The notes under the pieces are model-generated. The model did no database searches, was not told the origin of the DNA, and saw only the letters and a program-made list of their open reading frames with translations. From the NCBI GenBank assembly GCA_030427295.1, contig JAUHWS010000007.1, positions 1-45,947 on the forward strand: a DNA stretch of 45,947 bases. Direction: 5' to 3'. Origin of the DNA: a bacterium (lineage in GTDB: Bacteria > Patescibacteriota > Gracilibacteria > UM-FILTER-43-11). Both the position numbers and the translations under genes were made by a program. This document shows, in pieces, positions 15,410-31,724 of this stretch (within the stretch, counting starts at the first letter, position 1; the number at the start of each line of letters is the position of its first letter).

Positions 15410-15967
15410 TTGTCAAATATCCCTTCAAAAAAAATCGATGAGCTTGTGGAGCGGGCTCAAAAAGGAGATGCCGAGGCTTTCGGTGGTATTTATGATGAAT
15501 TGGTCAAGCCGATTTATCGTTATATCTATTACCGGGTGGAGCCTCAGATTGCTGAAGATCTGACGGAAGAGACTTTTTTGAAGGCTTGGAAAGCACTCCC
15601 TAAATATAAAAAAACGAAGCATCCATTTTCGGCGTGGGTTTTTAGGATTGCTCATAATTTAGTCTGTGATTATTATCGTAAAAATAAGACCACTAGTGAA
15701 ATTGATGAAAATGTGGCGGATGAGAATCGGTCTTCGAGTCCTAAAGAGCAAGTCAATCTCAAGCTAAATCAGGTTAAGCTCCATAAAGCCATCAAAAAGC
15801 TACCTGAAAATTACCAGCAGGTCATTATTCTCAAATATATTAATGAGGAAGAAAATCCGGCCATTGCTAAAATCATTGGAAAATCGGAGGGGGCCGTTCG
15901 AACCCTCCAATTTAGAGCTCTTGAAAAATTGAGGGGCTTGCTCTCCGAAAAAAAGGAAGATTTTTGA
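15410..15967 (+). CDS. ECF-type RNA polymerase sigma factor
   Basis: Sigma-70 family factor of 185 residues with only regions 2 and 4, the ECF layout. Region 2 (about 20-90) includes FGGIYDELVKPIYRYIYYRV, DLTEETFLKAWKAL and FSAWVFRIAHNLVCDYYRK. After a polar linker, region 4 (about 125-172) has LPENYQQVIILKYINEE and a helix-turn-helix ending EGAVRTLQFRALEKLR. The start is TTG; no ATG or GTG lies upstream in frame near the promoter at 15359-15387. The next gene, 49 bp downstream, encodes a membrane FecR-domain protein, so this is very likely a sigma/anti-sigma pair that senses an envelope signal. Target genes are unknown. Confidence 0.9.
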   Translation: MSNIPSKKIDELVERAQKGDAEAFGGIYDELVKPIYRYIYYRVEPQIAEDLTEETFLKAWKALPKYKKTKHPFSAWVFRIAHNLVCDYYRKNKTTSEIDENVADENRSSSPKEQVNLKLNQVKLHKAIKKLPENYQQVIILKYINEEENPAIAKIIGKSEGAVRTLQFRALEKLRGLLSEKKEDF

Positions 15968-16016
15968 AACAAATCCGTATTTGCTGCGTTGTATGACATG
16001 TAAGTATTAAAATTAA

Positions 16017-18221
16017 ATGGACAATTTAGACAAAGAACTTCACCGGCTGTCTAAAATCGAGCCCTCTGAGTCGTTTATGAATGACTCAAAAAAGAGGTTG
16101 CTCCATCATGTCCAACGTTCTCAGCCAGATCACTGGTTTAGAGCTTTTTTAAAAAAAGTCGGTGTGATTGAACCCTCCTCGTCTTTTGTTGTTGGCGCAA
16201 GGGCACGACTGGTTAGCCAAATTAAGGCGCTTCCTCAGCGGCCCTTGCGTGGACTTACTGTTTTTTGGCAGTTTGCTAAAAAGGCCATTGCATCCACCTT
16301 GGTCATGACTATTTCTGTTTTTTCTGTGTTGGTGGTCACTTATGAAAAACCGGTGTCTGCGTCGGATGATTCTTATCTACTCAACTTCAGTGATGGAGAT
16401 GTGTATGTCCAGCATGCGAATTCTAATTCTTTTGACAAAGTGAATGATCAGATTCAAATTCAAGAAGGAGACTTGATTTGGACCAAGGATAATAGCCCAG
16501 CCACTCTTTATTTTTCCGATGGCACACGGATTGAATTGGATGAAAATACTCGTTTTTTAATCAAGACTCTTAAATTGAGCCCTCACTTGGATCGTCAGGC
16601 CATCATTCAGGCCTCTCTCTCGGAAGGTCGGGTGTGGACACAAGTTTCTAATGTTAATGATGATGCGGCAGGCTTGACCATTTCAACGACAGATGCGGTG
16701 GTCACCAGTTTGAATGCCAGTTTCGATTTGAGGGATAATCTCATTCAGCCCACTGAAGTCTCTGTGTTTAAGGGGCGGGTGAAGGTGAGTCAAAACAGCG
16801 TAGGGCTGAACGGTCCTCAAGAAGTGGTCCGTTTGATGAGTGATGAACGGTTGGTGGTGGACAATAGAATCACCAATTTACCAACTTACAGTGAGTCTAT
16901 GCTCAGTGAAGCCATTGAGTTGGATGATTGGATCCAAGCCAATATGGAAAAGGATAAGGAGCATTTGGAGCGTTTGAAGGAAAAAGATTATCAAATGCTT
17001 GAGCAGATGGCTGGTCCTGTTCCTGGAGATCTCAATTATTTAGTTGAACAAGCCAATCAATATCTTAATTTGGCTTTGAGCGATGATGAGCAAGTGGTGG
17101 TGGATATTGCCAACAATCATTTGAATGATGCAATTTTGTTGTTTAAGTCGGGTGAGGTTGAAAAGGCCACGAAATCTTTAGAGGCTTACCGCGAGTTGAG
17201 TCGTCAGATTGCACAAGATGAGCGTTTTAAGGAAGATTCTGGTCAAGATGATGTGGAGACCCTGACTCATAAGCTTGTGACTACTCATGAAGCGAGTCTG
17301 AGGACTCAAGAGCCGGCGGACCCTGCGACTGATCTGGTGGAAGAAGCGATTCAAGAAACGGCTAAAGAATTGGTTGAAAATAATCCATTAAAGCTTGAAA
17401 AACTTAAAACGAATCAGGCGGTTGGCACTCTTGAAGATGTAGAGAAGCTTTTGGACGCGGGTGAAGTTGATTTGGCCAAAGATAAACTTGAAAAATATGG
17501 ACAAGAAAAGGCAATTCCTAAAGATGAATCTTTGAGAGATGAGATTAAGAAGGAAAATTCAGTGATTGAGTTGAAGGAGGATGAGCTGGCTTTGCTTGAA
17601 TCAGTGGCGGAGGAAATGACTAAAAAAGAGGCGATTAAACCTGATGATGAAAAGGATAAGAAATTGATTGCTATGGTGGATACAGCCTCTGAATCGGTTA
17701 AAAAAGAAGTGACGGAAGCTCGAGGTGAAGTCGATGGGACTGAAGACCATTCTGATTCCATGGCTAGTGCGACCCCAATCAATTTTGACCCAACCATTCC
17801 AAGTGAGCCAGTTGTGGTTACCAAGCCTCAGCCTGAACCCACCTATCGTGACCTTCAGTTCATGAGCTTGGTGGATCAAATTTATGTTTATGATTCGTGG
17901 GAGCGTCAAATCAACCAAATCAATCGTTTGTTTAATTTGGAGGAGGCCACTCAAACCAATATTGATTTCCTTCGAACTATCAGTGGCCAAATGCCAGCAG
18001 GCCGGGCGAAGTCTTATCTAGATTCAGCGATTTATCGTTTACAAATTACTTTAGATGCTCAAAATCAGCCTCTTGAAGATGCTTCTGGTCAGGTGGAGGG
18101 CGATGATCTTGCGGAAGGTGAAACGGTCCAACACCCAGCTCCTACAGAAGTGAATGACGCTGAGTACGATGAAAATCAGTCCACAAACAACGAGACTTCA
18201 GAATCTGATGAGATTCGTTAG
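16017..18221 (+). CDS. Membrane-anchored FecR-domain protein, putative anti-sigma factor
   Basis: 734 residues. The N-terminal cytoplasmic part (1-85) contains two copies of a short motif, IEPSESFMNDSKKRL (about 14-28) and IEPSSSFVVGARARL (about 51-65), which may contact the sigma factor encoded just upstream. A single membrane helix (about 88-109) is followed by an extracytoplasmic FecR-like domain (about 118-280: LLNFSDGDVYVQ, GDLIWTKDNSPATLYFSDGTRIELDENTRF, SVFKGRVKVSQ). The remaining 450 residues are acidic, helical and repetitive (LVEQANQYLNLAL, LEDVEKLLDAGEVDLAKDKL), probably an extended extracellular coiled region. A role as signal-receiving anti-sigma factor follows from gene order and topology. 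Its end overlaps the convergent gene by 4 nt. Confidence 0.85.
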   Translation: MDNLDKELHRLSKIEPSESFMNDSKKRLLHHVQRSQPDHWFRAFLKKVGVIEPSSSFVVGARARLVSQIKALPQRPLRGLTVFWQFAKKAIASTLVMTISVFSVLVVTYEKPVSASDDSYLLNFSDGDVYVQHANSNSFDKVNDQIQIQEGDLIWTKDNSPATLYFSDGTRIELDENTRFLIKTLKLSPHLDRQAIIQASLSEGRVWTQVSNVNDDAAGLTISTTDAVVTSLNASFDLRDNLIQPTEVSVFKGRVKVSQNSVGLNGPQEVVRLMSDERLVVDNRITNLPTYSESMLSEAIELDDWIQANMEKDKEHLERLKEKDYQMLEQMAGPVPGDLNYLVEQANQYLNLALSDDEQVVVDIANNHLNDAILLFKSGEVEKATKSLEAYRELSRQIAQDERFKEDSGQDDVETLTHKLVTTHEASLRTQEPADPATDLVEEAIQETAKELVENNPLKLEKLKTNQAVGTLEDVEKLLDAGEVDLAKDKLEKYGQEKAIPKDESLRDEIKKENSVIELKEDELALLESVAEEMTKKEAIKPDDEKDKKLIAMVDTASESVKKEVTEARGEVDGTEDHSDSMASATPINFDPTIPSEPVVVTKPQPEPTYRDLQFMSLVDQIYVYDSWERQINQINRLFNLEEATQTNIDFLRTISGQMPAGRAKSYLDSAIYRLQITLDAQNQPLEDASGQVEGDDLAEGETVQHPAPTEVNDAEYDENQSTNNETSESDEIR

Positions 18222-18820
18222 GTGGCGGCGGGTTGTGCTCCGCTGTAAAAAGGTCTGCCGAGTTGATTCAATGCTCCTGGAAGTCTTTCGGTGAAGTACT
18301 GAGTTTTTGAGCTGAGTAGCGTGCTGACTCCTTGTCGGGTTCTCCCAATAAGAGCCCCTACTGTTCCAGTGACGGTTTCTTTGGCATTTTTCACGAGATT
18401 GATTTTGGAGGCATGATCTTTCATGGCATCCCAGTTCATTTTGGCCGTTACCCAGGCTAACATGGCGAAGTTGGTGGTTGAGTCGACAATCATTTTTTTG
18501 AGCCCCCCTCCAAATTTCCAAGCTCCCCATAGCGGAACGGAAAGTGTTTCAAGTCCTCCTTTGGCCATTCGATAGATGTCGACAAAAGGGGCTTTGACGA
18601 TTTCTTTGGTGGCTCCAACCAGTCCTCCAATGGTTTCGCCAATGCGACTGCGGGTTCGCATGACCAGACCGTTTTCAGGTTTTTCAGCAACTTCTTTGCT
18701 TTCTGCTTTCACTAAGGCTGTTTCTTTTTCCCCAGATTTTTCCGCTTCGGCCATGAAAATGGAGCGAGCAGGAACGTTGCTCAGTGGGTCCGTTGATTGA
18801 AGGTGAATTTTTTGGAGCAT
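18218..18820 (-). CDS. Hypothetical protein, second gene of the 1393-residue protein unit
   Basis: 200 residues, family not recognised. The first 50 residues are polar and charged (EAEKSGEKETALVKAESKEV); the rest is amphipathic with short hydrophobic stretches (GETIGGLVGATKEIV, NFAMLAWVTAKMNW) that may associate with membranes but are not classical helices. The phrase AKGGLETLSVPLWG resembles IKGGAETLVPAL in the C-terminal part of the large protein encoded just upstream, hinting at a shared module. The ATG is 28 bp past that gene's stop, so the two are almost certainly co-transcribed. An internal Met at residue 23 (MAEAEKSG) is an alternative start. Confidence 0.75.
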   Translation of the reverse strand: MLQKIHLQSTDPLSNVPARSIFMAEAEKSGEKETALVKAESKEVAEKPENGLVMRTRSRIGETIGGLVGATKEIVKAPFVDIYRMAKGGLETLSVPLWGAWKFGGGLKKMIVDSTTNFAMLAWVTAKMNWDAMKDHASKINLVKNAKETVTGTVGALIGRTRQGVSTLLSSKTQYFTERLPGALNQLGRPFYSGAQPAAT

Positions 18821-18848
18821 TTATTTTTTTAGCTTTTTTTGAGGGGTT

Positions 18849-21800
18849 TTATGCCTCGGGTAAATGGAAGGCAATGAAGGTGGATTCACGGGGTGTGCTT
18901 TGAGTGAATCCTGCAATGGCTTCCAGTTTTGTGTTGAGTTGTTCAGGTGTGGTGCCGGTTTCCACTTTTCCATCCATGAAATAGGTCAAGGCTTCGGCTC
19001 GAGCGTAAGATTTGATGGCTGATTCACGGTTTTTCATGTTGCTGACAAAATCAGGGCTGGTGGCATCAAAGGCTTTATTGGGAAGGACTTCTACAATTAA
19101 ATATTGATTGCCATCCGGCATTTGGGTGTAGTAACGTCCTCCATTTTCTTCGACATCTGGATTTTCGGGCCCCTGCTCGAAAGTTTTCCAGATGGGATAC
19201 TGGTGTTTTCCAAAAATAGACTGTTCAGGATTGAGCTCCAGGTTGTGAGACACCACTGGCATGCCTGTTTTTGGATCGATTTCGGCGGGTTTGTCTCCAT
19301 CCCATTCCCAGGCGTATTCGCCGGCAATGTCTGAGGAGAGGAATTGTCCATCTTCTGCGGTGTGTAAGGTTGGCGGAAAGGCTGTTTTATCTGCCCATTC
19401 GACTGCCGTTCTAAGGGCGGGTACCAAGGTTTCGGCACCGCCTTTGATCAATTTGAATGGGAAAGCGACTGCTGTAGAGCTGATTTCCCACGCATCATCG
19501 CCTACCTTGTCAATGGTGGCGGCTAGGTCACCGGATTGCATTCTCACCAAAAGTTGTTTCCCTTCGGCTTCCAAGTATAATTTTTTTTCTTGGGCAAAAG
19601 AGGCGACGGATTCGTAAGCACCGGTGTCTTGAATCGATGACAGAACCGTTTCGGCTTTCTCGCTGATCCAGTTGTAGGCTCCGGTGGCTACCGATTCCAG
19701 AGTGACTTGATTGGCGATGTTTTGCTGGATCAAATACGGGCTCACTTCGGTTTGCATCACCTTTTCAAAGGTCAGTTGCTCTGGATGTTGTCGATACATG
19801 TTGGCCAAGACTTCGGGCAAAAGAACCTCGGCATGTTCAATGGGATGATTTTTATCTTCAATGTTGGTCACCCACATTTCTTTGAGAATGTTGAAGGTCT
19901 CGTCTTTTGGTTTTCCACGTTGTTTGGCCGAGAATTCAATGGAACGAGCGATGGTTTCAAAAACCACACTTTGATTGCGTCTCATTTTTTCTTTTCCTGG
20001 CAATTCGGGTGAAATTCGCCGGTCATCAATGTTCAAGGCCCGATATAACTCATCCATTTTTTCCTGCTTGCGTACGCCGTAAGGCTTTTTTCCTTCTTCA
20101 TAAAGTGCCAGCGCATCCTTGAACCGGACTTTTCGTAAGGCAAATTGGGCTTCTTTAAACTCTTTGGCTTTGAAGCCTTTTTCAATCATCACGTTTTGAC
20201 CTTCATTGATCAGTACTTGTTCGTGGGTGCGAACGCTTTCTTGGCCTGGCACTTGATCGGAGAGTTTTTCGATGATGCTGTTGCCCGTCCATTTTTCATA
20301 CCACAAAGCTCCCATCCCTCCCACTAAACTAGCAAAAGCGAGCTTTCCACTCGTTCCTTCCCTATTCCAGGCGGCTTTGAGATACATGGCAATCCCGACG
20401 ATGGTCAACCCTGCCAGCCCTTTGTCGACAATGTCTCCCGAATAAAGCATCCGGCGAAGGCTTCGGTAGCCTTCTTTTAATTTGCCTTTGAGGGTGGCTG
20501 GAGCCTGATTGAAGGTTTTTTCCATTTGATTGAGGGCATCAGCTTCCACTTGGACGGCTTCGGCCTTGGCTTCAATCATGGCTTTGATTCTTCCTACCAT
20601 TTCACGTGCCTTGGTTTGCACTTTTAATACTTGTGGATTGCTACTCGGTTCTTTTTTTGATAGAATGGCTGCTACAAGCGCATCTCGGCTCAACTGGGCC
20701 CCCTCTTTTTCTGGCGGAGGGATGATTTGAATCATCACGTTGGCCAGTTTTTGAGGGTCTTTATCAAACCATTCATCCCATTGCCGCATGTCGGTGTTTT
20801 CTGGATTTTCCAAATAGAGGGCGACATAGGCATCGTAAGTGGTTTTGGTGTCTAGGCCCATACGTTCTAGCTCCCGGATCATATCTACGGATCCTTCTGA
20901 GGCTTCATCTTTTTCAAATAGAGCGTGGTTGATTTCAGCCTGCCCTAATTCTTGGCGAGCGGCTTTGAATTGATCGATTGAAAGCAGTTGCAGGGTATTT
21001 GTGTTTTTGGCTAGCGCTGCGTCGCCTTGAGTTTGAAAGGCGAGGAGAAATGGGTGAGGTCTTCCATCCACAATGGGCTGTTTTAGAACGGTTTCAGTCT
21101 TTTGTATGAGCTCTTTTCGTTCTTCATTTTCTTTGACTAAGCGCTCCTTTTCATTTTCTAAAAATTTTTCGGGATAGAGTAGCGCTTCCGAATAGTTGAG
21201 TCCCCATTGATTGGCGACTGCTTTGACGTCTTCCCAAACCAAATGATCTTGTTGAAGCAGTTTATCAATTTCAACCAAGGCTTTTTGGCTGTCATGAAGT
21301 CCTTGAGCGGCTTCCCCCGCGGCAAAGGCTAATTCGATACACTGCTGGCGGATGGCTCCGGCTTTGTGCGTGTTGGGACTATTGAAGGCGTCTGAAACTT
21401 TGGTTTTTTCTAGAATCCAAGCGTTGCGAATGCTTTTATCAGCTCCTCCACTTCCTTTTCGAGAGAATTGAGAGATGAGGAGGGCCCGAATGGGTAGGTG
21501 ATACCCTTCTCCCAGTTCTCCACTGGAGAACTGGTCCACGATTTGTACTGAATTTTGAAAGCGTTTCATTAAGGCTTTGAGCAGCTCAGCTCGACCCTGA
21601 CCTTTAAAGTATTCCTTGGTGAATTTTTGATCGATCGCTGTTTTTTGAGGCCTTATTTTGGCCACGTTCAACTCGGCCTTCGCATGATTCAGGTAGGTGT
21701 TTCTAAGTTGGGTTATGACTGAATCCAGCGCATTGTTTTTATCTTTGATTTTTTGATTTTCTAGCAATCGGATATTCTCTTTCAATTCCCTTATTCGATC

Positions 21801-23030
21801 TTGGCATTCTTTTTCTGTTGGAGGAACGCTAAGTGAAGGTACTTCAGGTAAAAAGCTGTACTCGACCTTCTGATTTTTCAAAAAGGTGGATACATCTTGC
21901 ATGGCTGGAGTTGCTCGCCGAGCAATGTCTTCTGCTTGGCTGATTTGATCTGAAAGTTTGGGAGCCGTGATTTCCATCCAGGCTTCATAAAGGGCGGGAT
22001 GGTTTTTAATGTTCTCTTCGTAGTTTGAGCTCAGGTTGTCGGCTGGATCTTGATTGTAATCATTGGTTTCGACTTGTAGGTGAGCTAAAAACAGCCGTCT
22101 GTTTTCGTCAGCGCGTTGGGGGTTCAAATGGCCATTGGCATCTCGAATCAAATCTCTGAATTCGTCACTTTGTATGGCGGCATCATAAATGCTGGCCACT
22201 TCATGGTATACCGGTTTCTTTTTAACTGTTAGTTGGCTTTCCCGTTGTTTCTCCACTTCTTCGATCTTCTTCATCAGCGGCTGTGTTTCCTTCAAGATTA
22301 CGTCGGGATTTGATAAATCCGCTGAAAGAACAGGGTTTAGTTGTACCTCTTCCTTCTTCGTTTTTTTGGCTTCGTTTAAGTAGCCTTTTAATTCAAACAA
22401 GGTCTCGCGTTCTTTTCGAGTGACATTCACGCGGGGTTGATACATGATGATGTCGTCGATGGCTTCGATGGTGGCGTCTATATCAATGCCACCCTTTGCG
22501 GTCATTACAGGGTCGAGTTTGTTTTTTTGTCTCTTTTGATGAAGCTTGCTTCGAACGCCCTCATTGTATCCTTTGATTTTCTGTTGGATTGCTTTAAACG
22601 GTCCTTCGTCATTGACTTCTATGATGCCTTTTGAACGGGTTTTTTCCTCTTTTTTTAGACGGTTGAGGTTGGCAGCAATGTTTTTGAGCTCTTGTCGTTT
22701 TCGCTTGATGGATGAAAGCACCTGTTTTGCTTCAGAATTGGCAGTCAATTGACGCAAATAGGTTTCCAGATCAATTTCAAGGGTGGATGAGAGGGGATTT
22801 TTGGCATCTAGATGGCCGACATGCCCTTCAGTTTGATTGTATTGCTTGGCTAACCCTTCAAGTTCTTTTTGTTTTGCTTTATATAAGGCTTCAAATTCCT
22901 TCTCTGACATTTCTGCAGCCTTTCTTTGACCCATTGTTTCAGCTCCGTTGGTGCCATCATACACTAAGCGAGCCGTATTGAAGGGCTTTGCTGGGTCCAT
23001 GCTCCGTTGGTGGCAGTTGAGTCGGTCCAT
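18849..23030 (-). CDS. Very large hypothetical coiled-coil protein with a membrane hairpin
   Basis: 1393 residues, no family recognised. The N-terminal 850 residues are strongly helical and charged with coiled-coil character (KEFEALYKAKQKELEGLAKQ, EVEKQRESQLTVKKKP). Two hydrophobic stretches at about 865-917 (GLAGLTIVGIAMYLKAAW and GKLAFASLVGGMGALWYEKW) look like a membrane hairpin. The C-terminal 470 residues are a mixed, more globular region (ESVATGAYNWISEK, AFPFKLIKGGAETL, NGGRYYTQMPDGNQYLIVEVL). No signal peptide is seen, so the long N-terminal part is probably cytoplasmic. It has its own promoter (extended -10 at 23064-23069) and shares a transcript with the 200-residue gene downstream. 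A structural or scaffolding role at the membrane is only an inference. Confidence 0.85.
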   Translation of the reverse strand: MDRLNCHQRSMDPAKPFNTARLVYDGTNGAETMGQRKAAEMSEKEFEALYKAKQKELEGLAKQYNQTEGHVGHLDAKNPLSSTLEIDLETYLRQLTANSEAKQVLSSIKRKRQELKNIAANLNRLKKEEKTRSKGIIEVNDEGPFKAIQQKIKGYNEGVRSKLHQKRQKNKLDPVMTAKGGIDIDATIEAIDDIIMYQPRVNVTRKERETLFELKGYLNEAKKTKKEEVQLNPVLSADLSNPDVILKETQPLMKKIEEVEKQRESQLTVKKKPVYHEVASIYDAAIQSDEFRDLIRDANGHLNPQRADENRRLFLAHLQVETNDYNQDPADNLSSNYEENIKNHPALYEAWMEITAPKLSDQISQAEDIARRATPAMQDVSTFLKNQKVEYSFLPEVPSLSVPPTEKECQDRIRELKENIRLLENQKIKDKNNALDSVITQLRNTYLNHAKAELNVAKIRPQKTAIDQKFTKEYFKGQGRAELLKALMKRFQNSVQIVDQFSSGELGEGYHLPIRALLISQFSRKGSGGADKSIRNAWILEKTKVSDAFNSPNTHKAGAIRQQCIELAFAAGEAAQGLHDSQKALVEIDKLLQQDHLVWEDVKAVANQWGLNYSEALLYPEKFLENEKERLVKENEERKELIQKTETVLKQPIVDGRPHPFLLAFQTQGDAALAKNTNTLQLLSIDQFKAARQELGQAEINHALFEKDEASEGSVDMIRELERMGLDTKTTYDAYVALYLENPENTDMRQWDEWFDKDPQKLANVMIQIIPPPEKEGAQLSRDALVAAILSKKEPSSNPQVLKVQTKAREMVGRIKAMIEAKAEAVQVEADALNQMEKTFNQAPATLKGKLKEGYRSLRRMLYSGDIVDKGLAGLTIVGIAMYLKAAWNREGTSGKLAFASLVGGMGALWYEKWTGNSIIEKLSDQVPGQESVRTHEQVLINEGQNVMIEKGFKAKEFKEAQFALRKVRFKDALALYEEGKKPYGVRKQEKMDELYRALNIDDRRISPELPGKEKMRRNQSVVFETIARSIEFSAKQRGKPKDETFNILKEMWVTNIEDKNHPIEHAEVLLPEVLANMYRQHPEQLTFEKVMQTEVSPYLIQQNIANQVTLESVATGAYNWISEKAETVLSSIQDTGAYESVASFAQEKKLYLEAEGKQLLVRMQSGDLAATIDKVGDDAWEISSTAVAFPFKLIKGGAETLVPALRTAVEWADKTAFPPTLHTAEDGQFLSSDIAGEYAWEWDGDKPAEIDPKTGMPVVSHNLELNPEQSIFGKHQYPIWKTFEQGPENPDVEENGGRYYTQMPDGNQYLIVEVLPNKAFDATSPDFVSNMKNRESAIKSYARAEALTYFMDGKVETGTTPEQLNTKLEAIAGFTQSTPRESTFIAFHLPEA

Positions 23031-23063
23031 TTAGGGGCCTCAAGTTCTTTAATAAATCTTTAT

Positions 23064-23069
23064 ATTATA
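23064..23069 (-). promoter_or_regulatory. Extended -10 promoter element for the 1393-residue protein gene
   Basis: On the minus strand the sequence reads TTTGGTATAAT, a TATAAT box with the TG-N extension. No good -35 is visible, which fits an extended -10 promoter. Transcription would begin near 23057, about 27 nt before the ATG at 23030. Confidence 0.6.
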
Positions 23070-23185
23070 CCAAATTTTGGCTTAAAAAGCGAGTTTATAT
23101 GTGTTGACGTATTTATTTATAATGGCCTAATTTTTAGGTGTTTTTCCGTCCTTAGAATGTGAGGAAATTGTTTCACTTTAATTCT

Positions 23186-23564
23186 GAAAGCGAGGTTTGG
23201 AAACCTCGCTTTCATTGAGAAATGGGAAAAATGGTTGTACTCTGGGGCGTTAGACCCTAGAGTCGTCAGTATTTGGATGCTCAGAATTAAGACGATTCCA
23301 TGGTTAAGCCATGGAATGACAACTCTATACTTTGGGTTGAGGTTAGTATATACTTTCGTCTCAATTACGAATTACAAGTGACTAATGACGAGTTTGTTTT
23401 TTGAGCGTTTAGCGGTCAGCGTGTAGCGTTTAGCTCTATTCTAAGATCTATTTTAGCTATTCGCTACTCGCTATTCGCTAGTCGCTTGCTGAAAAAGGTA
23501 CTGGGATGAACTTCAGTATTTTGAAGATGATGAGTATATGGTTGAGGAGAGGGTCAGTATATAC
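23186..23564 (+). repeat. Composite intergenic repeat, copy 3
   Basis: The layout is complete. Hairpin 1 is at 23186-23213 (GAAAGCGAGGTTT/AAACCTCGCTTTC). Hairpin 2 is ACTCTGGGG (23239-23247) with CCCTAGAGT (23255-23263). Hairpin 3 is ATTCCATGG/CCATGGAAT (23295-23317). Module A has 8-mers at 23323-23330 (degenerate) and 23346-23353. A long inverted repeat of heptads follows: TTTAGCG-type units (23404-23434) against CGCTATT-type units (23455-23487). Module B has 8-mers at 23534-23541 and 23557-23564. Module B ends at the base before the stop codon of the minus-strand gene at 23565. The gap 23031-23564 holds nothing else but the promoter near 23064. Confidence 0.82.
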
Positions 23565-24866
23565 TTACAACGAATCGATGTCGCTTAGTATGGCTGATTT
23601 CCTTCTTCCTTTTCGACCTGATCCCGCTTCTTCGGGTTCGGGGAGTTCAAATGGAATGTTCGAATCTAGGGCGGCTAAAGCCTCTTTTCCTTGTTGATAA
23701 CCGAAGAAGGCAGCATCTTCGATGAGGTCTTTTTTGAGCCAATCCACGACATCTTTTTTAACGAAATCCTCATCTCTCAAATCACGGGGTTTCATGGTGG
23801 GGTCTAAAATTAGGGTGATTTGGCGAATTTTATTCCAATTTTTAGCCCGTACCAAACCGTCTAATCGAGAAGTGATTGTACTGAGTCGTTCATTGTGCTC
23901 TGCTTTTTGGGCGGGGGCTTTTTCAATGATGTATTTGACCACTTTTCGTACGGCCATGGGGGGGTAATCGTGCGGATTTTTGCTCATGTTTTTGATCAAC
24001 CGATCCATGTCTTTGCCTTCTTTGTCCGCTAGTTTTTCTATTTTTTTGTCTTTGGCCTTGGGGAGTAGCTCTGGCAAATAACCGGCTAATTCATCTCGGT
24101 TGGCATGCGGAAGCCAACGGGCGATCAGCATCACGCGTTGGGTGTGGAAGTAATCTTCCATGGATTCTTTGGATGCTTCTCCTTTTTCGGCGGCTTCAAG
24201 GGTTTCATCTTTGATCCATAACCCTTCTTTATTTTGAGCTAAAAAGTGACCATCTGACCCTATTCCTCCCAACATGACGGGAGGTTTGGAATTGTCCCAA
24301 ATTTCTTGTACGTCGTCTTGGGTGGCGGAGGGTTTGATTTCAAAGGCAGATCCTTTTCGGCTTTGTAGCCCAACGGCCATGGCTTCGAGGAGACTTCTTA
24401 GAGGGTGACCTTTGGCTTCGGAGGGGTAATTGCTTTCATTGACTGCATCTAGAGCATTTTTGACTTGGCTGAATTGAGCGGCTTTTTCGGGTTCAAGCGG
24501 CGCGCTGGCGGTGGGAGTGTCCAGAAAGTCTTCTTGAAATTGATTGGCTTCCCATTCGGTTCCGGGTGAGGTTGCTGCTTGAGTCGGAGCTGTTTCACTG
24601 TTTACATCGCTTAAATCTACCTTGCTCAAAACACGGTCGGCTCGCTTTTCAATGCGTTCGGTGTCACGTCCTGCTTTATCGCGGCGCTCATGCCGTTTTT
24701 GAATGGTTTCGACTCGATTCTTTTTTCGTTTGAGTTTGCGCAATTCTCGCCCTGCTTCTCGCCTTTCTTTGCGCGCCCGGCGTCGACGTGGGCCGACGAC
24801 ATCACTGATCACCTCTTCTTTGGCGTCGCGTTTCTTATCACGCGTGGCTTCGATTTTTTTCTCCAA
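23565..24866 (-). CDS. Hypothetical highly charged protein (fourth gene of the large-protein operon)
   Basis: 433 residues from a TTG at 24866; not recognised. The N-terminus is extremely basic and coiled (RRRRARKERREAGRELRKL and onward to about residue 85), then a Ser/Thr/Pro-rich linker, then a helical region (about 125-420: HPLRSLLEAMAVGLQSRKG, ARWLPHANRDELAGYLPELL). No signal peptide or membrane helix is visible, so it is probably cytoplasmic and may bind nucleic acid or acidic partners through the basic segment. The frame stays open for about 150 bp upstream and looks coding there (for example NNGFEPFKEARRVYRN), yet contains no ATG, GTG or TTG, so the true start may be a rare codon nearer 25000. 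It follows the 110-residue gene in the same operon. Confidence 0.8.
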   Translation of the reverse strand: MEKKIEATRDKKRDAKEEVISDVVGPRRRRARKERREAGRELRKLKRKKNRVETIQKRHERRDKAGRDTERIEKRADRVLSKVDLSDVNSETAPTQAATSPGTEWEANQFQEDFLDTPTASAPLEPEKAAQFSQVKNALDAVNESNYPSEAKGHPLRSLLEAMAVGLQSRKGSAFEIKPSATQDDVQEIWDNSKPPVMLGGIGSDGHFLAQNKEGLWIKDETLEAAEKGEASKESMEDYFHTQRVMLIARWLPHANRDELAGYLPELLPKAKDKKIEKLADKEGKDMDRLIKNMSKNPHDYPPMAVRKVVKYIIEKAPAQKAEHNERLSTITSRLDGLVRAKNWNKIRQITLILDPTMKPRDLRDEDFVKKDVVDWLKKDLIEDAAFFGYQQGKEALAALDSNIPFELPEPEEAGSGRKGRRKSAILSDIDSL

Positions 24867-25017
24867 TTGATCGAGTTTTTTATCGATTTCTTTTTGAAAG
24901 GCTTCCCCCGATTCCGAAAGTCCTTCAGGATTTCGGTAAACCCGTCGCGCTTCTTTGAAAGGCTCAAAGCCGTTGTTGTGGAGGTGTGTGTTTTTTATTT
25001 TTTGGTTTTCTTAAAAT

Positions 25018-25350
25018 TTAGCCAGCATTTTTATGGGCCTTTAACACCCGTTCTTCAAATTTTTCAATTGCTTTAGCCATTGCTTCTTGGGCAGCGGGAC
25101 TGTTTTTAATCAATTCTGTTATGAGTGCCCACCAATTGTTTTGATTGGTTTCTTTTTGCAGGGCTTGATCGACAAGATCTGGATTGATGTGTCTAGCGGC
25201 CGCGTCAAAGAGTTGGTCATGGAGAATTTTTCCAAAAACTTCCTTTAATTCGGCTATTTTTTGAGGGTCTTCATTTTGCATGCCCATTTTCTCGATCAAT
25301 TGGTCGAGAAATGTGATGGGGTCGAAATTTTTTTCAGACATATTTTTCAT
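25018..25350 (-). CDS. Small hypothetical helical protein
   Basis: 110 residues, predicted all-helical and soluble: FLDQLIEKMGM, LKEVFGKILHDQLFDAAARHI, WWALITELIKNSPAAQEAMAKAIEKFEERVL. It resembles in style the short helical domains of unknown function common in Patescibacteria, but I cannot name the family. Two starts are possible, ATG at 25350 (MKNMSEK) or at 25341 (MSEK). It starts 6 bp after the stop of the 785-residue gene, so the two are surely co-transcribed. Its place among much larger proteins suggests an accessory or adaptor subunit, which is an inference from operon structure only. Confidence 0.8.
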   Translation of the reverse strand: MKNMSEKNFDPITFLDQLIEKMGMQNEDPQKIAELKEVFGKILHDQLFDAAARHINPDLVDQALQKETNQNNWWALITELIKNSPAAQEAMAKAIEKFEERVLKAHKNAG

Positions 25351-25356
25351 GAGAGT

Positions 25357-27714
25357 TTATTTTTTATCTTTCTTCTTTTCTTTCTTTTTCGCAGCGGCTT
25401 TTTTGACAAACGGGATATAGCCGGCCAATCCCCCGGTCCCTACCACGGCTAATTTAGCTGCCCCTCGACCGATGTCTCTAGCGCGTTTGACGAAGGCTGG
25501 AAGCACTCCAGCGACTCCAGCGGCAGCTAAGGCAGGTAGGGCTCCTGCTCCAAGAAGAAGCATGGCTCCTCCTCCTACTGCTCCTGAGATGAGGAGTGTT
25601 TTATGGAATGTGTCTAATCTTTCTTGTTCTTCAGCAGTCTCTGCTTCAATACTTGCATTCTTCAGTTTACCTGCTCCATAAATGGCTGCTCCTGTGAGTA
25701 AGGCTGCAGGGCTTAAGGCATACAATGCTATACCTGCTGCTGTTTTAGTAAGTCCTTTTGCCCATTCTATCGTTTCTCTGTCTCTGAAAAACTTGGCTAG
25801 TACATCAATCTTTGCACTATCTCCTTGAGTGTTACTTTTTTCCCAGTTGTGACCAAATGACAGCATGTGATCAATTCCCTTTCCTTTAGCATTTTTATCT
25901 GCTTGCTCCACAACATTGTCTTCGATGATGTTCAATAATTTATCTGCTTTTATGGCTGAGTCGGCATCCACTTTGGCGGCATTGGCACTGTAAACGGTAG
26001 CTTTTAGGTAGCCAACAATTAGTGGAGCATACACTTTATTGACATGCTCGGGGCTGAATTTTTTAATTTCACTGACCCATTTTTCGTAGCTCATTTTTTC
26101 ATCGGCGACATCTTCAAGTTTTTTGAGATGTTCCACGCCAATTCTACCCAGTTTATCATCTTTTAGGGCAATTTCCTCAAGGGTGCTCGCCAAATCTGGC
26201 TTAAACCATCCTGAAACTCGCTCTAAGAATCCAATGCGAGCACGATTCGCTTCGCGAGCTTCTCGTTCGTAAGTTCGAGCGACTTCTTTGGCACGCTCAT
26301 GGCTTGGTTCTTCACTGTCATTGACAGCGCTTATAGATTCAAAATAATATGAAATTAAAGCCAGGGCTTCACGAGGTGAGCGAACCGGGGCGAGGCGTCT
26401 TCCTTTTTGGCTTATTTCGCTATCTAGTAAATTACTGCGTCCAACCCATTCTTCTCTTTTATTGCGAAGCTCATCTATGCGATCACTACTTTCGTGAATT
26501 TCCTGAATGGTTCGATTTGGATTTTGCATCAGACGTCGGTCTTCTTCGATGGCTATTTCAATTTCGTCATCAATTTGATTGAGACCTTGTTCAACCAACT
26601 GCCTTTGATCATTGTATTGTTTGAGTTCTTCAGCGGTTAAGCCTTTTGGATTTTGTAAGTAAGCTTTTAAGGCTCGATAGTCTACGGTTCCTAATTCCTC
26701 TTGATCTTTCAAAAGCTCAATGATGGCAAAAGCAATTGGATCCTTTGTTTCAGTATCAATCCTCAATTCCTCTATTAAAAATTGATATGCTCCATAATTT
26801 GGATTTAGCCTGGCTTGTGGTCTGGCAGGTGCTAAATTTGGTCCAGCATTGATGTCTGCTTCTCCTAAGCCTGATACGATTGTACCTGGCGCCGCGGGTG
26901 CTGCTGCTGGCTCAAGTGGTGTTTGTGCAACATCCATACTGGTTGGAGCTCCAACAGTTCCTCCGGATGGTCTGGGTTGTGGTGGGGCAGGTGCGGGTGT
27001 TGGTGCCGGCGTTAGAATAGAAACACCCTCGACCGGCCCAGTCCGCTTCATTTCTGGATTGATGGATTCACTTGCTCCTGCATCGGTTATAGTTGCTTCT
27101 GGAGCTGTCGGAGCGGCGGTGTTGGTTGGTTGCCCAACAATAGTTGCCATACTGTTTAATCCACCAACGGTATCATCTGCTGTTGGGGTTGGCATGTCTA
27201 CAGTGGGTGTCGTTTCACCTGTGACGATAGACACTCCCACCTCGGGCTCGCTTGGTGCTTTAGTTGGTTCAGGCACTAGAGCTAATTGAATTCTTTTCCG
27301 AACATTCGGATTTTCTGAAACCCTTTCAGCGGTAACATCTATTAGTGCTTCATCTACATAAGCATCGAGTTCTTTAAAAATATCAGCTAGTTCCTCACCT
27401 CTGCTCTGGCTCTTTCTGTCTTCTCCAATTTGCCTTAATCCAACCAACAGAGCTTTCATGTCACGTCTAGTTGAAGACACCCTTGCTCGGTCTTTAATTT
27501 TATCCAGAATGTCTGGATAGCCAGAAAGCATTTTCTGGAAACGTGCTTCAGCGGCTGCGACTTCTACTGGGTTGTAGGTTAGGGCTCCATCATCTCCAGA
27601 TTTGAGGGCTGTTTTTGCGTCTTCAAGCAGTGTGCGAAACTCAATAATGCGATTTTGCTCCTCGGTTAATTCTCTTGCTTTGTCTGCTCCTGTGGGTGCT
27701 GCGGCGGTGGCCAT
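25357..27714 (-). CDS. Large hypothetical protein with Pro/Thr-rich linker and C-terminal membrane segments
   Basis: 785 residues, family not recognised. About residues 1-145 are helical; 150-300 form a low-complexity linker rich in Pro, Ala and Thr (APTPAPAPPQPRPSGG), likely flexible; 300-640 are helical and charged (IEIAIEEDRRLMQNPNRTI, HVNKVYAPLIVGYLKATVY). The C-terminus (about 645-765) has several hydrophobic Ala/Gly-rich segments (AAGIALYALSPAALLTGAAIY, split here by eye, and ISGAVGGGAMLLLGAGALPA) and ends in a Lys-rich tail (KKAAAKKKEKKKDKK). This implies C-terminal membrane insertion with a large cytoplasmic head. It lies 19 bp after the 766-residue gene and 6 bp before the 110-residue gene, in one operon. 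Confidence 0.82.
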   Translation of the reverse strand: MATAAAPTGADKARELTEEQNRIIEFRTLLEDAKTALKSGDDGALTYNPVEVAAAEARFQKMLSGYPDILDKIKDRARVSSTRRDMKALLVGLRQIGEDRKSQSRGEELADIFKELDAYVDEALIDVTAERVSENPNVRKRIQLALVPEPTKAPSEPEVGVSIVTGETTPTVDMPTPTADDTVGGLNSMATIVGQPTNTAAPTAPEATITDAGASESINPEMKRTGPVEGVSILTPAPTPAPAPPQPRPSGGTVGAPTSMDVAQTPLEPAAAPAAPGTIVSGLGEADINAGPNLAPARPQARLNPNYGAYQFLIEELRIDTETKDPIAFAIIELLKDQEELGTVDYRALKAYLQNPKGLTAEELKQYNDQRQLVEQGLNQIDDEIEIAIEEDRRLMQNPNRTIQEIHESSDRIDELRNKREEWVGRSNLLDSEISQKGRRLAPVRSPREALALISYYFESISAVNDSEEPSHERAKEVARTYEREAREANRARIGFLERVSGWFKPDLASTLEEIALKDDKLGRIGVEHLKKLEDVADEKMSYEKWVSEIKKFSPEHVNKVYAPLIVGYLKATVYSANAAKVDADSAIKADKLLNIIEDNVVEQADKNAKGKGIDHMLSFGHNWEKSNTQGDSAKIDVLAKFFRDRETIEWAKGLTKTAAGIALYALSPAALLTGAAIYGAGKLKNASIEAETAEEQERLDTFHKTLLISGAVGGGAMLLLGAGALPALAAAGVAGVLPAFVKRARDIGRGAAKLAVVGTGGLAGYIPFVKKAAAKKKEKKKDKK

Positions 27715-27733
27715 CTAAAATAAAATTAAGTGA

Positions 27734-30034
27734 TTATTTTTCTGACAGGTCTTCTTCTATTAAAAATTTAGCTTCCGGGTCTGTTTGTAAGTATCTTTTG
27801 AGTTCTTCTACATCTTTTATTGCTGGAAGTTCACTCAGGACATCTTGCTTCATTCCATTGTAGGTGGGGCTGAAATATTCTTTTGAGAGGGCGACCAATA
27901 ATCTCTCAAAACTAGCTTGAAGAGGTTCACCTTCTAAAGCTGCTAAAAATTCACCATATGTATCAGATAATTCTGGACTGATAGAAGGTTTGTTTGTTTC
28001 TGGTTTGATGCCGGCTATTTTGTAATAGGCTTGTAAAGCTCTTTCGATGTGCCCTCCTTGATCTTCTTTGAAGATTTTGCAGACCATTCTTGCTCCAGGA
28101 GCTTCATCAGTTTGTTCTACATCAATGATACGCTTTAGCTTACTTTTGTCAATTTCTTGGAACCCATTCACTTTGGCAACATCTTTTATTTTTCCGTCCA
28201 CCATGGCATCCACAATGACACTCAGCATTTGGGAAGCAAAAACTCTCAAACGATTTGTTCTTGCATCATTTCTGGGAAGGTCTAGCATCTGAAAGAGAGT
28301 ATCGATTTTTGCCACCACTTCTCTGGCAAAATCAGGTGAGCTTACTTCTTCGTAGGTGTCTGCAAAGTCGTAAGTGAGCTCATAATAAAGCTGCTCTTCA
28401 TTTATTCGTCTATTTACCACTTCAAAGGCTTGGTCGAATTCTTTCTTTTCCCACCACTTGAATTCATCTCTTTGTTCTACATTTCTTTTGACTTGTATAG
28501 CAAGTCTTTTTCGCGCTTCTTCTAAGCTTTCTATTCGATCCCTATGATCTAGTTTTGCATATTCTTCGGAGCTAACTATAATTTGAAAATCTCTTAGGTA
28601 ATCCCTTAATTCTCCTAGTGCTTCACGCTCTTGATCAAGGGTTCTTTCTTTTTTTGGAGGTTTAATCGAGACTGTTGCTGGCTCTACTTTTCCTCCAGCT
28701 TTTTTACCACTGTCGTCTGGTCTTTTGATTCCAGGAACGAATGAAATCAAAGGTAGCGTACTTGTTCCGATTTCATCGGCGACTTTTATTAACATGTCTA
28801 GTCCTTCGGCATAGCTTAATTCTGCATATGCTGGCATTCGTCTTCTGTCTTTTGCCCTAGAAAGGTCTGCAAGAATTCCAATCGCATCTTTTTCAAATTG
28901 ATCGGTTTTTTCTTTGTATGCTCCCACTAAAACACCCCTTAGTCTATCTGTTCGTCTCATTTGATCTCGCCCTGCATCAGCTGTTTTATCACTACCAGCA
29001 TCAGTTTTTTTATCTGCTGAGTCTCTGGAGGATGTGGGTCGGCTGGTTGAACGATCATTCTTTGTTGAAAGTGGTTTGCCTGTTTTTGGATTCACTCTGG
29101 CTTGCCTAAGTAGCTCTCCAATGTCTTCTTTTCGACGCCAACCCGATAGACCTAGTTCTTTCTTAGCCTGGGCTAAATCACTTGATAACTTTCGCTTTCT
29201 AATGGCTGATCGATGTATTTTTACTAGGATTTTGATCAATAATTTATATTTTCCTTCGTCTGCTTCTTTGATTTCTTTTATCTTCCTAGCTCCATCGCTA
29301 ATTTCTTTCGGGCTGGGATGTTCACTTTTGGCTTTATCAACATCACCTTTATCGACGGGTTTTGAATCTGGTTTTTTGCCGGCTGCTTTAGTGGCGGCTT
29401 TTGCCCTTTGCCTGGTTTCGTCTTTGGCAATAAAACGCTCCATGTGTTGTTGAATGGAAACGTATGCTTTTACTGTTAAGCCATCTGACCTTTTTTTCAT
29501 CGCTTTCCCCCGTTCATCTTTTGTCGTTGATTTGGGATTTGCGATGATTTTTACGAAACGCATTAACTCATCAAATTTGGTTTTATCACTTCCATGGGCA
29601 ATGACCAATTCCGCGACTATTTCATATTTTGCTTGCAATTGATCACCAATTGTTTTAATTAGAGTTTCAGCAGTGCTTTTTTCTCCATCGCTTAATCCAC
29701 TCGTAGCTCTTTTTAGGGCGGCTTTTACTTGTCCTAGTTCGGATGGGCTAGTGACGATAGCTTCATCCACTAAAAATTTACGAACTTCTTTGAGTTTCGT
29801 TCTATAATTTGAATCGTCTAAATCTTGAAGCATTGCTTCCACACGAGATGGTACGCTGTCAGGTGCTTTTGGTTCAGGTTTTACTGCGGCTCTGTCAACT
29901 TTTTGTCTTACTTCTCTTACTTCATTGCTGGAGTCTCTTACTTCCACTGCGCTTAATGCCCTTTTTAAGGCATCGTTCCCGAACACGCTGTCTGATGATG
30001 TTGAGGGTACGCTAACCAAATTCAATGTGGGCAA
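27734..30034 (-). CDS. Large hypothetical charged soluble protein, first gene of the operon
   Basis: 766 residues from a TTG at 30034, not recognised. There is no signal peptide or membrane helix. A helical N-terminal part (about 60-215) is followed by a Lys/Asp/Ser-rich, probably disordered stretch (about 215-265), another helical part (about 265-320), a second low-complexity region (KNDRSTSRPTSSRDSADKKT), and a mostly helical C-terminal half (about 370-766). Very high charge and coiled character throughout. It opens the transcript that continues through the 785-, 110- and 433-residue genes, driven by a near-consensus promoter at 30052-30080 with an inverted repeat over the start point. The leader is only about 11 nt, so initiation may be leaderless-like. 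Confidence 0.82.
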   Translation of the reverse strand: MPTLNLVSVPSTSSDSVFGNDALKRALSAVEVRDSSNEVREVRQKVDRAAVKPEPKAPDSVPSRVEAMLQDLDDSNYRTKLKEVRKFLVDEAIVTSPSELGQVKAALKRATSGLSDGEKSTAETLIKTIGDQLQAKYEIVAELVIAHGSDKTKFDELMRFVKIIANPKSTTKDERGKAMKKRSDGLTVKAYVSIQQHMERFIAKDETRQRAKAATKAAGKKPDSKPVDKGDVDKAKSEHPSPKEISDGARKIKEIKEADEGKYKLLIKILVKIHRSAIRKRKLSSDLAQAKKELGLSGWRRKEDIGELLRQARVNPKTGKPLSTKNDRSTSRPTSSRDSADKKTDAGSDKTADAGRDQMRRTDRLRGVLVGAYKEKTDQFEKDAIGILADLSRAKDRRRMPAYAELSYAEGLDMLIKVADEIGTSTLPLISFVPGIKRPDDSGKKAGGKVEPATVSIKPPKKERTLDQEREALGELRDYLRDFQIIVSSEEYAKLDHRDRIESLEEARKRLAIQVKRNVEQRDEFKWWEKKEFDQAFEVVNRRINEEQLYYELTYDFADTYEEVSSPDFAREVVAKIDTLFQMLDLPRNDARTNRLRVFASQMLSVIVDAMVDGKIKDVAKVNGFQEIDKSKLKRIIDVEQTDEAPGARMVCKIFKEDQGGHIERALQAYYKIAGIKPETNKPSISPELSDTYGEFLAALEGEPLQASFERLLVALSKEYFSPTYNGMKQDVLSELPAIKDVEELKRYLQTDPEAKFLIEEDLSEK

Positions 30035-30221: not shown

Positions 30222-31724
30222 TTATTTAGACAACAACTCTGTCAAAAATCCTACCCCGACGCCGGATGAGAAACCTTTGCGGCGGTGTGGTGCTCCGGAG
30301 CCGTCCATGTCGATGGAGCCGGCGATGTCGAAGTGGCAGAATTTGGCGGTGTGTTCGCCGGTTTTCTTGTCTTTGGGCACAAATCTAGCCAGGTAATAAC
30401 CAGCCTTTAGCCATCCCGCATCGCGCTCTTTTTGACCTAAGTTGGCCACGTCGGCGACGGGGCTGATGTTGTCATCGTATTCCAAATCCCATGGTCCCGA
30501 GAAAACCAGATCACCGGTTTTTTGACCGGCTTCTACGGCTTCTTGGCGCAATTCATCATCATTACACAGGTTCCCGGTGTAGACTTCTCCCAAAGCCACC
30601 ACACAGCTTCCTGTCAGCGTGGCGATGGTGTAGACTTTGTCGATGTTCTTCAAGTTATTTTTGGCGTAGCAAATGGCATCTCCCATGACGAGTCGACCTT
30701 CTGCATCGGTGTGGACGATTTCAACGGTTTGCCCATCTCCGGCCGTCCAAACGTCATCGGCCCGTTGAGCGGAGGTCCCCATCATGTTTTCGGCGAGGGG
30801 TAACAAAAAGTGGGTGGTTTCTTTGAGTTGATGCTTGTTTTTGACAATGTTCAACACGGTGGAGAGTACGCTGGCACTCCCGGCCATATCTTCCTTCATC
30901 GATTTCATGTGTGATCCTTTTCCTTGCATTCCTCCTGAGTCATAACAGATTCCCTTTCCAACCACCACGGTATTCTTTTTACTCCCTTTCACGGGGATGG
31001 TTAGAATGAGCAATTTTGAATCATGGCCGCTTCCGTGCGAGACGGCATTGAGGAGTTCGTATTTTTTAAGCTCTCGCTTGGAGACATTTTTGCATTTCAC
31101 ACCCCATTTGCGAGCGAGTTTTTGAACTACTTCTGCGTAAGCTTCAGTGCTCAAACTGTTGGGAGGGGTAGCCCCCAAAATACGCATCAAATTCTTAGCC
31201 TCTGCCGTGTTTTCTCCCCGTTTGACTTCTTTCTTCACCTTGGCAAGGGTGGCTCCTTTGAAGGATTCGTTGACCAGGGCTACGGTGAGGGCTGGTTTTT
31301 TGGGCGCCTTGGGTTTGTAAATGCTCGGATTCAAAGCGGCGACGTGGATACCGATGGCTGCAAAATAGGCCCAGTCGGCTTCGTCACACAAAATGGCGAT
31401 GGATTTGAGCCTGACGACTTCGCCTCCCAAAAACATAGATCCGAACATTCTTCTGATGGTGCGTGGAGTCATTTTGCCTTTTTTCCCCATTCCACGTACT
31501 TTCCACAACTGGCCATCCACCACCAAATTATGAGCTTCTTTTTTCTTCCCTGTCAATTTGAGGGATTTTAATTCTTTGCAATCTTTCATCATGTTTTGTG
31601 CAGATTCTTCAAAAACAGGCAAATAGAGCACATCGTACTTTTTAAAAGCTGAATCTGCCACGATCTTGGGCAAATTTTGGTTTTTTACATCGGTTAGATT
31701 CAAAATATCCTTGACGGTCATCAT
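30222..31724 (-). CDS. pepA: Leucyl aminopeptidase family protein (M17)
   Basis: Cytosolic dizinc/dimanganese aminopeptidase that trims N-terminal residues from peptides. 500 residues, usual for M17. The N-terminal domain is divergent; the catalytic C-terminal domain shows the metal and active-site boxes: VVVGKGICYDSGG (Lys and Asp ligands), MKSMKEDMAGSASV, LPLAENMMGTSAQRADDV and the signature HTDAEGRL (usually NTDAEGRL), followed by ATLTGSCVVALG. The His in place of Asn in that last box is a modest deviation. Two adjacent ATGs (31724, 31721) are possible starts. The gene is monocistronic between the DUF559 element and the hairpin at 30168; a DNA-binding role as in E. coli PepA cannot be judged from sequence. 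Confidence 0.93.
   Translation of the reverse strand: MMTVKDILNLTDVKNQNLPKIVADSAFKKYDVLYLPVFEESAQNMMKDCKELKSLKLTGKKKEAHNLVVDGQLWKVRGMGKKGKMTPRTIRRMFGSMFLGGEVVRLKSIAILCDEADWAYFAAIGIHVAALNPSIYKPKAPKKPALTVALVNESFKGATLAKVKKEVKRGENTAEAKNLMRILGATPPNSLSTEAYAEVVQKLARKWGVKCKNVSKRELKKYELLNAVSHGSGHDSKLLILTIPVKGSKKNTVVVGKGICYDSGGMQGKGSHMKSMKEDMAGSASVLSTVLNIVKNKHQLKETTHFLLPLAENMMGTSAQRADDVWTAGDGQTVEIVHTDAEGRLVMGDAICYAKNNLKNIDKVYTIATLTGSCVVALGEVYTGNLCNDDELRQEAVEAGQKTGDLVFSGPWDLEYDDNISPVADVANLGQKERDAGWLKAGYYLARFVPKDKKTGEHTAKFCHFDIAGSIDMDGSGAPHRRKGFSSGVGVGFLTELLSK

What the first reader, a model, noticed from the sequence alone, without database searches (positions are those of the whole stretch)
18218..30034. 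About 12 kb of large, charged, unrecognised proteins in two adjacent transcription units
Six minus-strand genes (766, 785, 110, 433, 1393 and 200 residues) with spacing of 6-28 bp inside units show no domain I can name. Common traits are coiled, charged helical regions, low-complexity linkers and C-terminal or internal membrane hairpins in the 785- and 1393-residue proteins, with no signal peptides. Large cytoplasmic heads tethered to the membrane plus small helical partners look like a scaffold, a motor-less secretion or adhesion base, or a cytoskeletal assembly. In a reduced genome, 12 kb on one system implies an important role. This is the best candidate for an undescribed protein system here.
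Basis: partly seen in the sequence, partly recalled or inferred. Interest (0 to 1): 0.75.

Follow-up and report, generated by a model that had tools for sequence, protein, structure and literature searches.

The report
Hidden N-terminal tag on giant proteins
The six unknown proteins include the core of a gene block conserved in one family of ultrasmall Peregrinibacteria, and three of them begin with a short peptide tag that also starts many otherwise unrelated large proteins of the group, including wall-cutting enzymes without a normal export signal, so it looks like an undescribed address label, perhaps for delivering proteins out of the cell.

Summary
The six genes are real and have no Pfam or NCBIfam match. 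A2 (785 aa), B (110 aa) and D (1393 aa) belong to a block, pepA-A-B-C-D, kept in order across about a dozen genera of one Peregrinibacteria family. The 766-aa gene is unique to this genome, C is poorly conserved and E is variable.

The main discovery is an N-terminal tag in C, D and E, consensus [FL]-x-[EP]-[NKA]-R-[LF]-[VIL]-[FY]-x-x-[GP]. It recurs at the start of dozens of otherwise unrelated proteins (about 79 unique sequences, 85-2579 aa). A profile trained only on this family hit 34 places in other families of the class; 32 lie in the first 40 residues of an ORF (p about 1e-28). No hit at E<=0.002 was listed outside the class. Tagged proteins lack Sec signals, yet some carry transglycosylase-amidase-LysM, lysozyme-GDSL or LytR domains. 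Some tagged genes sit beside a polytopic membrane protein and a T4SS coupling ATPase.

Best reading: the tag addresses Sec-less proteins to a T4SS-like exporter, and the window encodes tagged cargo plus untagged helpers. That the tag is real is well supported; export, and the T4SS as route, are inferred (0.45 overall). The window's own tags, E's above all, are weaker than its relatives'.

The parts
18849..23030 (-). D, 1393 aa, tagged; principal conserved component (1.57-2.0 kaa in relatives)
   Evidence: helical AlphaFold model of a relative's fragment, pLDDT 68, no fold match
22935..22994 (-). Tag of D: PAKPFNTARLVYDGTNGAET, motif at residue 20
   Evidence: marginal with a model that leaves window tags out
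23565..24998 (-). C, 433 aa as called, probably about 477 aa with the in-frame upstream extension; tagged
   Evidence: divergent from other C proteins
24912..24971 (-). Tag of C: GFEPFKEARRVYRNPEGLSE
   Evidence: best-scoring of all window ORFs with a model built without window tags
25018..25350 (-). B, 110 aa, untagged, five-helix bundle model; chaperone or adaptor candidate (role inferred)
25357..27714 (-). A2, 785 aa, untagged, C-terminal hydrophobic segments; conserved C-terminal two thirds
27734..30034 (-). A1, 766 aa, untagged, found only in this genome; sits in the block between A2 and pepA
18218..18820 (-). E, 200 aa, tag candidate; an E-like tagged gene stands between D and the FecR/sigma pair in several relatives
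18731..18790 (-). Tag candidate of E: DPLSNVPARSIFMAEAEKSG (weak)
   Evidence: E 7.9e-6 with a model that included it; noise level with a model that did not
30222..31724 (-). pepA-like gene (leucyl aminopeptidase by inspection, not profiled), conserved upstream neighbour of the block
34756..37293 (+). T4SS coupling ATPase (T4SS-DNA_transf, TrwB_AAD_bind), 12 kb from D; neighbourhood only

Best explanation
The block encodes a set of large proteins without Sec signals that are sorted by a short N-terminal tag. The tag, [FL]-x-[EP]-[NKA]-R-[LF]-[VIL]-[FY]-x-x-[GP], starts at about residue 3-44 and is followed by a charged, Pro/Glu-rich linker. In this Peregrinibacteria-type lineage it marks a few to about eight proteins per genome for handling by a T4SS-like envelope machine, most likely export to the surface or into a neighbouring cell. 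In the window C, D and (less surely) E are tagged cargo; B is a small helical chaperone or adaptor; A2, with C-terminal hydrophobic segments, is an untagged membrane-associated partner. Shown: the tag is a positionally constrained, clade-restricted protein motif; the block is conserved; tagged proteins lack Sec signals and some carry wall-active domains. Inferred: export, the T4SS as route, and the roles of A and B.
For: 32 of 34 profile hits outside the training family lie within the first 40 residues of an ORF (p 8e-29). In a phylum sample all 14 hits at E<=0.002 are in the class. All six Arg codons are used, so selection is on the peptide, not the DNA. Tagged proteins without a Sec-type start carry SLT+Amidase_2+LysM (L194), LytR (L191), lysozyme+GDSL (L184). 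L191 is in an operon with GH3+VanY and a T4SS coupling ATPase. In G004 and in the window's own genome a tagged or tag-like gene adjoins a 7-TM protein, with a TrwB-like ATPase next to it in G004, and similarly in other families. A small ORF precedes 19 of 66 tagged genes against 26 of 323 others.
Against: No protein was shown to leave the cell. The T4SS-like genes are class-wide while the tag is not, the T4SS-adjacent tagged proteins are only two homologous families and several have lost the Arg, and most tagged genes are not near a coupling ATPase. Known T4SS signals are mostly C-terminal. The window's own tags are weak, and tag columns in D are only moderately more conserved than the rest (36% against 27-28%).
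Confidence: 0.45

Rival explanations
1. The tag is an intracellular docking motif: it tethers large proteins to a membrane complex or scaffold, possibly the T4SS-like complex itself, and they are not exported. This is.
For: Most tagged proteins have no enzyme domain and are long and helical; a short terminal peptide plus flexible linker suits docking; tagged genes in T4SS-like clusters could be machine parts.
Against: Wall hydrolase domains make no sense inside the cell.
Confidence: 0.3
2. The tag controls expression or turnover, for example as a translation leader or an N-terminal protease or adaptor recognition site.
For: Position at the start of the protein; the motif tolerates 3-44 residues before it.
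Against: All six Arg codons are used, which argues against an RNA-level signal; the concentration on large proteins without Sec signals and on wall enzymes is unexplained.
Confidence: 0.12
3. D and other giant tagged proteins are phage-derived, such as tape-measure or tail proteins of a prophage or tailocin.
For: Length, helicity, lysozyme or SLT domains in some tagged proteins; weak, non-significant tail-protein rows in the viral fold search.
Against: No PHROG of known function, no tail or capsid genes in the neighbourhoods read, and stable synteny with pepA and CCA-type housekeeping genes across genera.
Confidence: 0.05
4. The motif is a chance or compositional match, and the block is just fast-evolving proteins of unrelated function.
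For: It is short, and a regex alone on 337 kb of this genome is not significantly N-terminal (p 0.11).
Against: 32 of 34 N-terminal placement in families not used for training; restriction to the class.
Confidence: 0.02

Closest known systems
Xanthomonadales X-T4SS antibacterial effectors (PMC8262851, PMC11253643)
   Same: Unrelated effector bodies, including wall-active enzymes, share a recognition sequence; a small partner gene is often adjacent
   Different: Their signal is at the C-terminus and the partner is an immunity protein; here the tag is N-terminal, unrelated in sequence, and the small partner is a helical protein of unknown role
Patescibacteria T4SS (PMC12102498)
   Same: Coupling ATPases and a polytopic membrane protein occur in these genomes; effector delivery has been proposed
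   Different: No substrates or signals are described; VirB6 homologues are reported scarce or absent in Gracilibacteria, and the 7-TM protein here has no profile match
Type III secretion translocator operons (from general knowledge)
   Same: Small helical partner next to large proteins with hydrophobic segments
   Different: No homology, no T3SS genes seen, and T3SS signals have no clear consensus
Sec, Tat and other N-terminal export signals (from general knowledge)
   Same: N-terminal position, shared by unrelated proteins
   Different: No hydrophobic core (median best 12-residue hydropathy 0.59) and no twin Arg; some C homologues of other genera do have Sec- or Tat-like starts
Encapsulation or docking peptides of bacterial compartments (from general knowledge)
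   Same: Short terminal peptide plus flexible linker on unrelated proteins
   Different: No shell gene seen in the loci read; wall enzymes are unlikely cargo

Membership tests
T4SS substrate | Exported or translocated by a T4SS | not testable with these tools
   Needs secretion experiments
T4SS substrate | Encoded with or near T4SS components | tested here: inconclusive
   Some tagged genes adjoin a coupling ATPase or the 7-TM gene, most do not; T4SS-like genes are class-wide
T4SS substrate | Known C-terminal signal such as the X-T4SS consensus | not tested
   No C-terminal motif search was run
VirB6 (7-TM protein next to tagged genes) | Profile match to VirB6/TrbL | tested here: not met
   No Pfam match for L188, L190 or L107 proteins; called VirB6-like from topology and context only
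T4SS coupling ATPase (window 34756-37293) | T4SS-DNA_transf / TrwB domain above the curated cut-off | tested here: met
   E 5.5e-14 and 9.6e-10
Sec or Tat secreted protein | Hydrophobic N-terminal signal in tagged proteins | tested here: not met
   (hydropathy only; no dedicated predictor)
Phage tail or tape-measure protein | PHROG match or significant viral fold match | tested here: not met
Secretion chaperone (for B) | Fold match to a known chaperone | tested here: not met
   No PDB match at E<=0.001 for a model of moderate confidence

The most novel reading that the evidence does not exclude
An undescribed, clade-specific N-terminal secretion code of Peregrinibacteria: one short motif addresses giant, Sec-less proteins, including peptidoglycan hydrolases, to a T4SS-like injector for delivery into or onto host cells, with dedicated small chaperones; the window block encodes a conserved cargo set of it.
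Probability: 0.3. Interest if true: 0.9.

Novelty: new variant of a known kind. Interest (0 to 1): 0.72.

Why it matters
What Patescibacteria send out of the cell, and through what, is open: a 2024 review calls the role of the T4SS in Saccharibacteria completely unknown and effector delivery speculation (PMC11665869). A searchable N-terminal tag on wall-active and giant proteins would turn that into a list of candidate substrates per genome and a direct test, by mutating the conserved Arg or binding the peptide to the coupling ATPase. It also gives a handle on the many large unknown proteins of these reduced genomes.

Tried and rejected
Pfam, NCBIfam and PHROGs on the six proteins: nothing of known function. 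The first genome-contig scan, with window D alone, failed; with the family alignment it found 10 loci, titled Peregrinibacteria, Gracilibacteria or Patescibacteria except one labelled Proteobacteria. Foldseek on B and D models: no match. A1 as the missing N-terminal half of A: no similarity. Tag-T4SS link by phylogenetic profile: not supported, the 7-TM protein is class-wide. A binomial test for T4SS adjacency was computed but is not used as evidence, because the adjacent proteins turned out to be two homologous families and so not independent. Paper searches for the motif and for a described signal found none; the library is partial.

Full report
OBSERVATION. No curated family matches. Two details change: C extends upstream in frame to ATA 24998, with no ATG/GTG/TTG available, and only the 785-aa protein has clear hydrophobic C-terminal segments.

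CONSERVATION. The window lies in a 1.48-Mb, 92%-complete genome. D is found by single sequence in 12 of 98 relatives, the window's own genome included, and by profile in 16 of 18 genomes of the family, with two weak hits elsewhere in the class. The neighbourhoods show the same block, pepA then A (0.7-1.7 kaa), B (104-120 aa), C (340-584 aa), D (1.57-2.0 kaa), in many genera, with some rearrangement. In G001, of the same genus, D and E sit together without A-B-C nearby (L026). Named relatives are mostly titled Candidatus Peregrinibacteria. The 766-aa gene has no relative in 17 other family genomes, and C of the window is barely similar to other C proteins. Members of the D, B and C alignments have no convincing Pfam match.

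THE TAG. The starts of C, D and E share a motif that their bodies do not. In D the tag columns are only moderately more conserved than the rest (36% against 27-28% mean pairwise identity), so the case rests on recurrence in other proteins. A profile of these starts, searched in nine family genomes, brought back further hypothetical proteins. Of 14 extra loci read, 12 had the motif at a protein's start; the other two were internal matches in one gene, a DNA polymerase III delta-like protein by my reading. A second profile, built from family f1 only, was run over 192 class genomes. Of 34 hits outside f1 at E<=0.02, 32 are within the first 40 residues of an ORF against 11% expected (p about 8e-29). 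In a phylum sample all 14 hits at E<=0.002 were inside the class. Across 79 unique tagged ORFs the consensus is [FL]-[KLS]-[EP]-[NKA]-R-[LF]-[VIL]-[FY], starting at residue 3-44 (median 18), then a linker richer in Pro and Glu. Those 79 were collected with a pattern that requires R, and a hand-made list of false hits was excluded, so the invariance of R there is by construction; that all six Arg codons occur is not.

WHAT TAGGED PROTEINS ARE. They run from 85 to 2579 aa, some cut by contig or locus ends, and most have no known domain. Those that do are telling: SLT+Amidase_2+LysM (L194), LytR_cpsA_psr (L191, in an operon with a GH3+VanY protein and a T4SS coupling ATPase), Phage_lysozyme2+GDSL (L184), metallophosphoesterase (L198). 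The first three have no Sec-type N-terminus by hydropathy. Wall-active domains without a signal peptide need another way out, which is the main argument for export.

MACHINE. In G004 a tagged gene lies in a cluster with a one-TM protein, a 7-TM protein and a TrwB-like ATPase. At the 7-TM gene of other genomes, the adjacent large gene is tagged, or has a tag-like start, in most f1 genomes read, including this genome (L124), and in several other families, but not in f18 or G010. These adjacent proteins form two homologous families and several have lost the Arg, so this is suggestive and not proof. The 7-TM protein is class-wide and coupling ATPases are in all 25 genomes tested.

SMALL PARTNERS. 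Small ORFs directly precede 19 of 66 tagged genes against 26 of 323 others (p 1.6e-5). The size and distance limits were chosen after looking at the loci and the sets contain related loci, so that p-value is optimistic. Seven of the small proteins were aligned into a profile, which also found a further small gene next to a tagged gene (L204) and one with no tagged neighbour (L127). B is the counterpart in position, not shown to be homologous; its model is a five-helix bundle without PDB match. A chaperone or adaptor role is inferred.

HOW IT MOST LIKELY WORKS. Tagged proteins are kept competent by small partners, recognised through the N-terminal motif, and passed to a T4SS-like machine. D, helical and giant, would be the principal cargo of this block. 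My estimates: tag is a real N-terminal signal 0.93; it serves export 0.6; the full statement including the T4SS route 0.45. The main alternative is docking at a membrane complex without export.

LIMITS. The window's tags are weaker than those of relatives. With a model that leaves them out, C ranks first among window ORFs (iE 0.026), D is marginal, level with an unrelated internal match, and E is not above noise. Several models, patterns and thresholds were tried on the way (A5, A6, A8, A12; regexes of varying width); the statistic relied on is the one from A8 on families outside its training set. No experiment on this motif was found in the searched library.

Noticed in passing
window 24867-24998: C has an open frame with the tag upstream of its called TTG start, but the only possible first codon is ATA in an A-rich run: unusual initiation or an assembly error.
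   Followed up: partly
window 15410-18221; L026, L135, L136: An ECF-type sigma factor and a FecR-domain protein stand next to E (convergent with it in the window) and are kept near D/E in several relatives; possible regulator of the block.
   Followed up: partly
L188:9892-12261, L190:4389-6713, L107:7348-9270, L124:2810-4549: A polytopic membrane protein found in 176 of 192 class genomes has no Pfam match; by topology and context it could be the VirB6 that PMC12102498 reports as scarce or absent in Gracilibacteria.
   Followed up: partly
L191:11608-13932: A GH3+VanY wall enzyme with neither signal peptide nor tag, in an operon with a tagged LytR protein and a T4SS coupling ATPase.
   Followed up: partly
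L235, L239, L242, L246, L248: T4SS-adjacent homologues of tagged proteins have tag-like starts that lost the Arg (for example KPSFVFFAGGPE), so the motif is degenerate in some orthologues.
   Followed up: partly
L085/L127, L083, L215: A tagged gene stands beside a ruvB-like gene in G000, G001 and G014, suggesting a second conserved tagged locus.
   Followed up: no
L030:3028-4236, L023:5426-6649, L024:10855-11913: C homologues of other genera have Sec- or Tat-like hydrophobic stretches about 30-60 residues in (for example NRRGFLEKSGRTAAAVAAAALFTAIP) instead of the tag, which fits export of C by another route.
   Followed up: no
window 23031-23564: 534-bp gap between C and D with short repeats (TAGCGAATAGC, CGCTAAACGCT) and a TATAAT-like stretch about 30 bp before D.
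   Followed up: no
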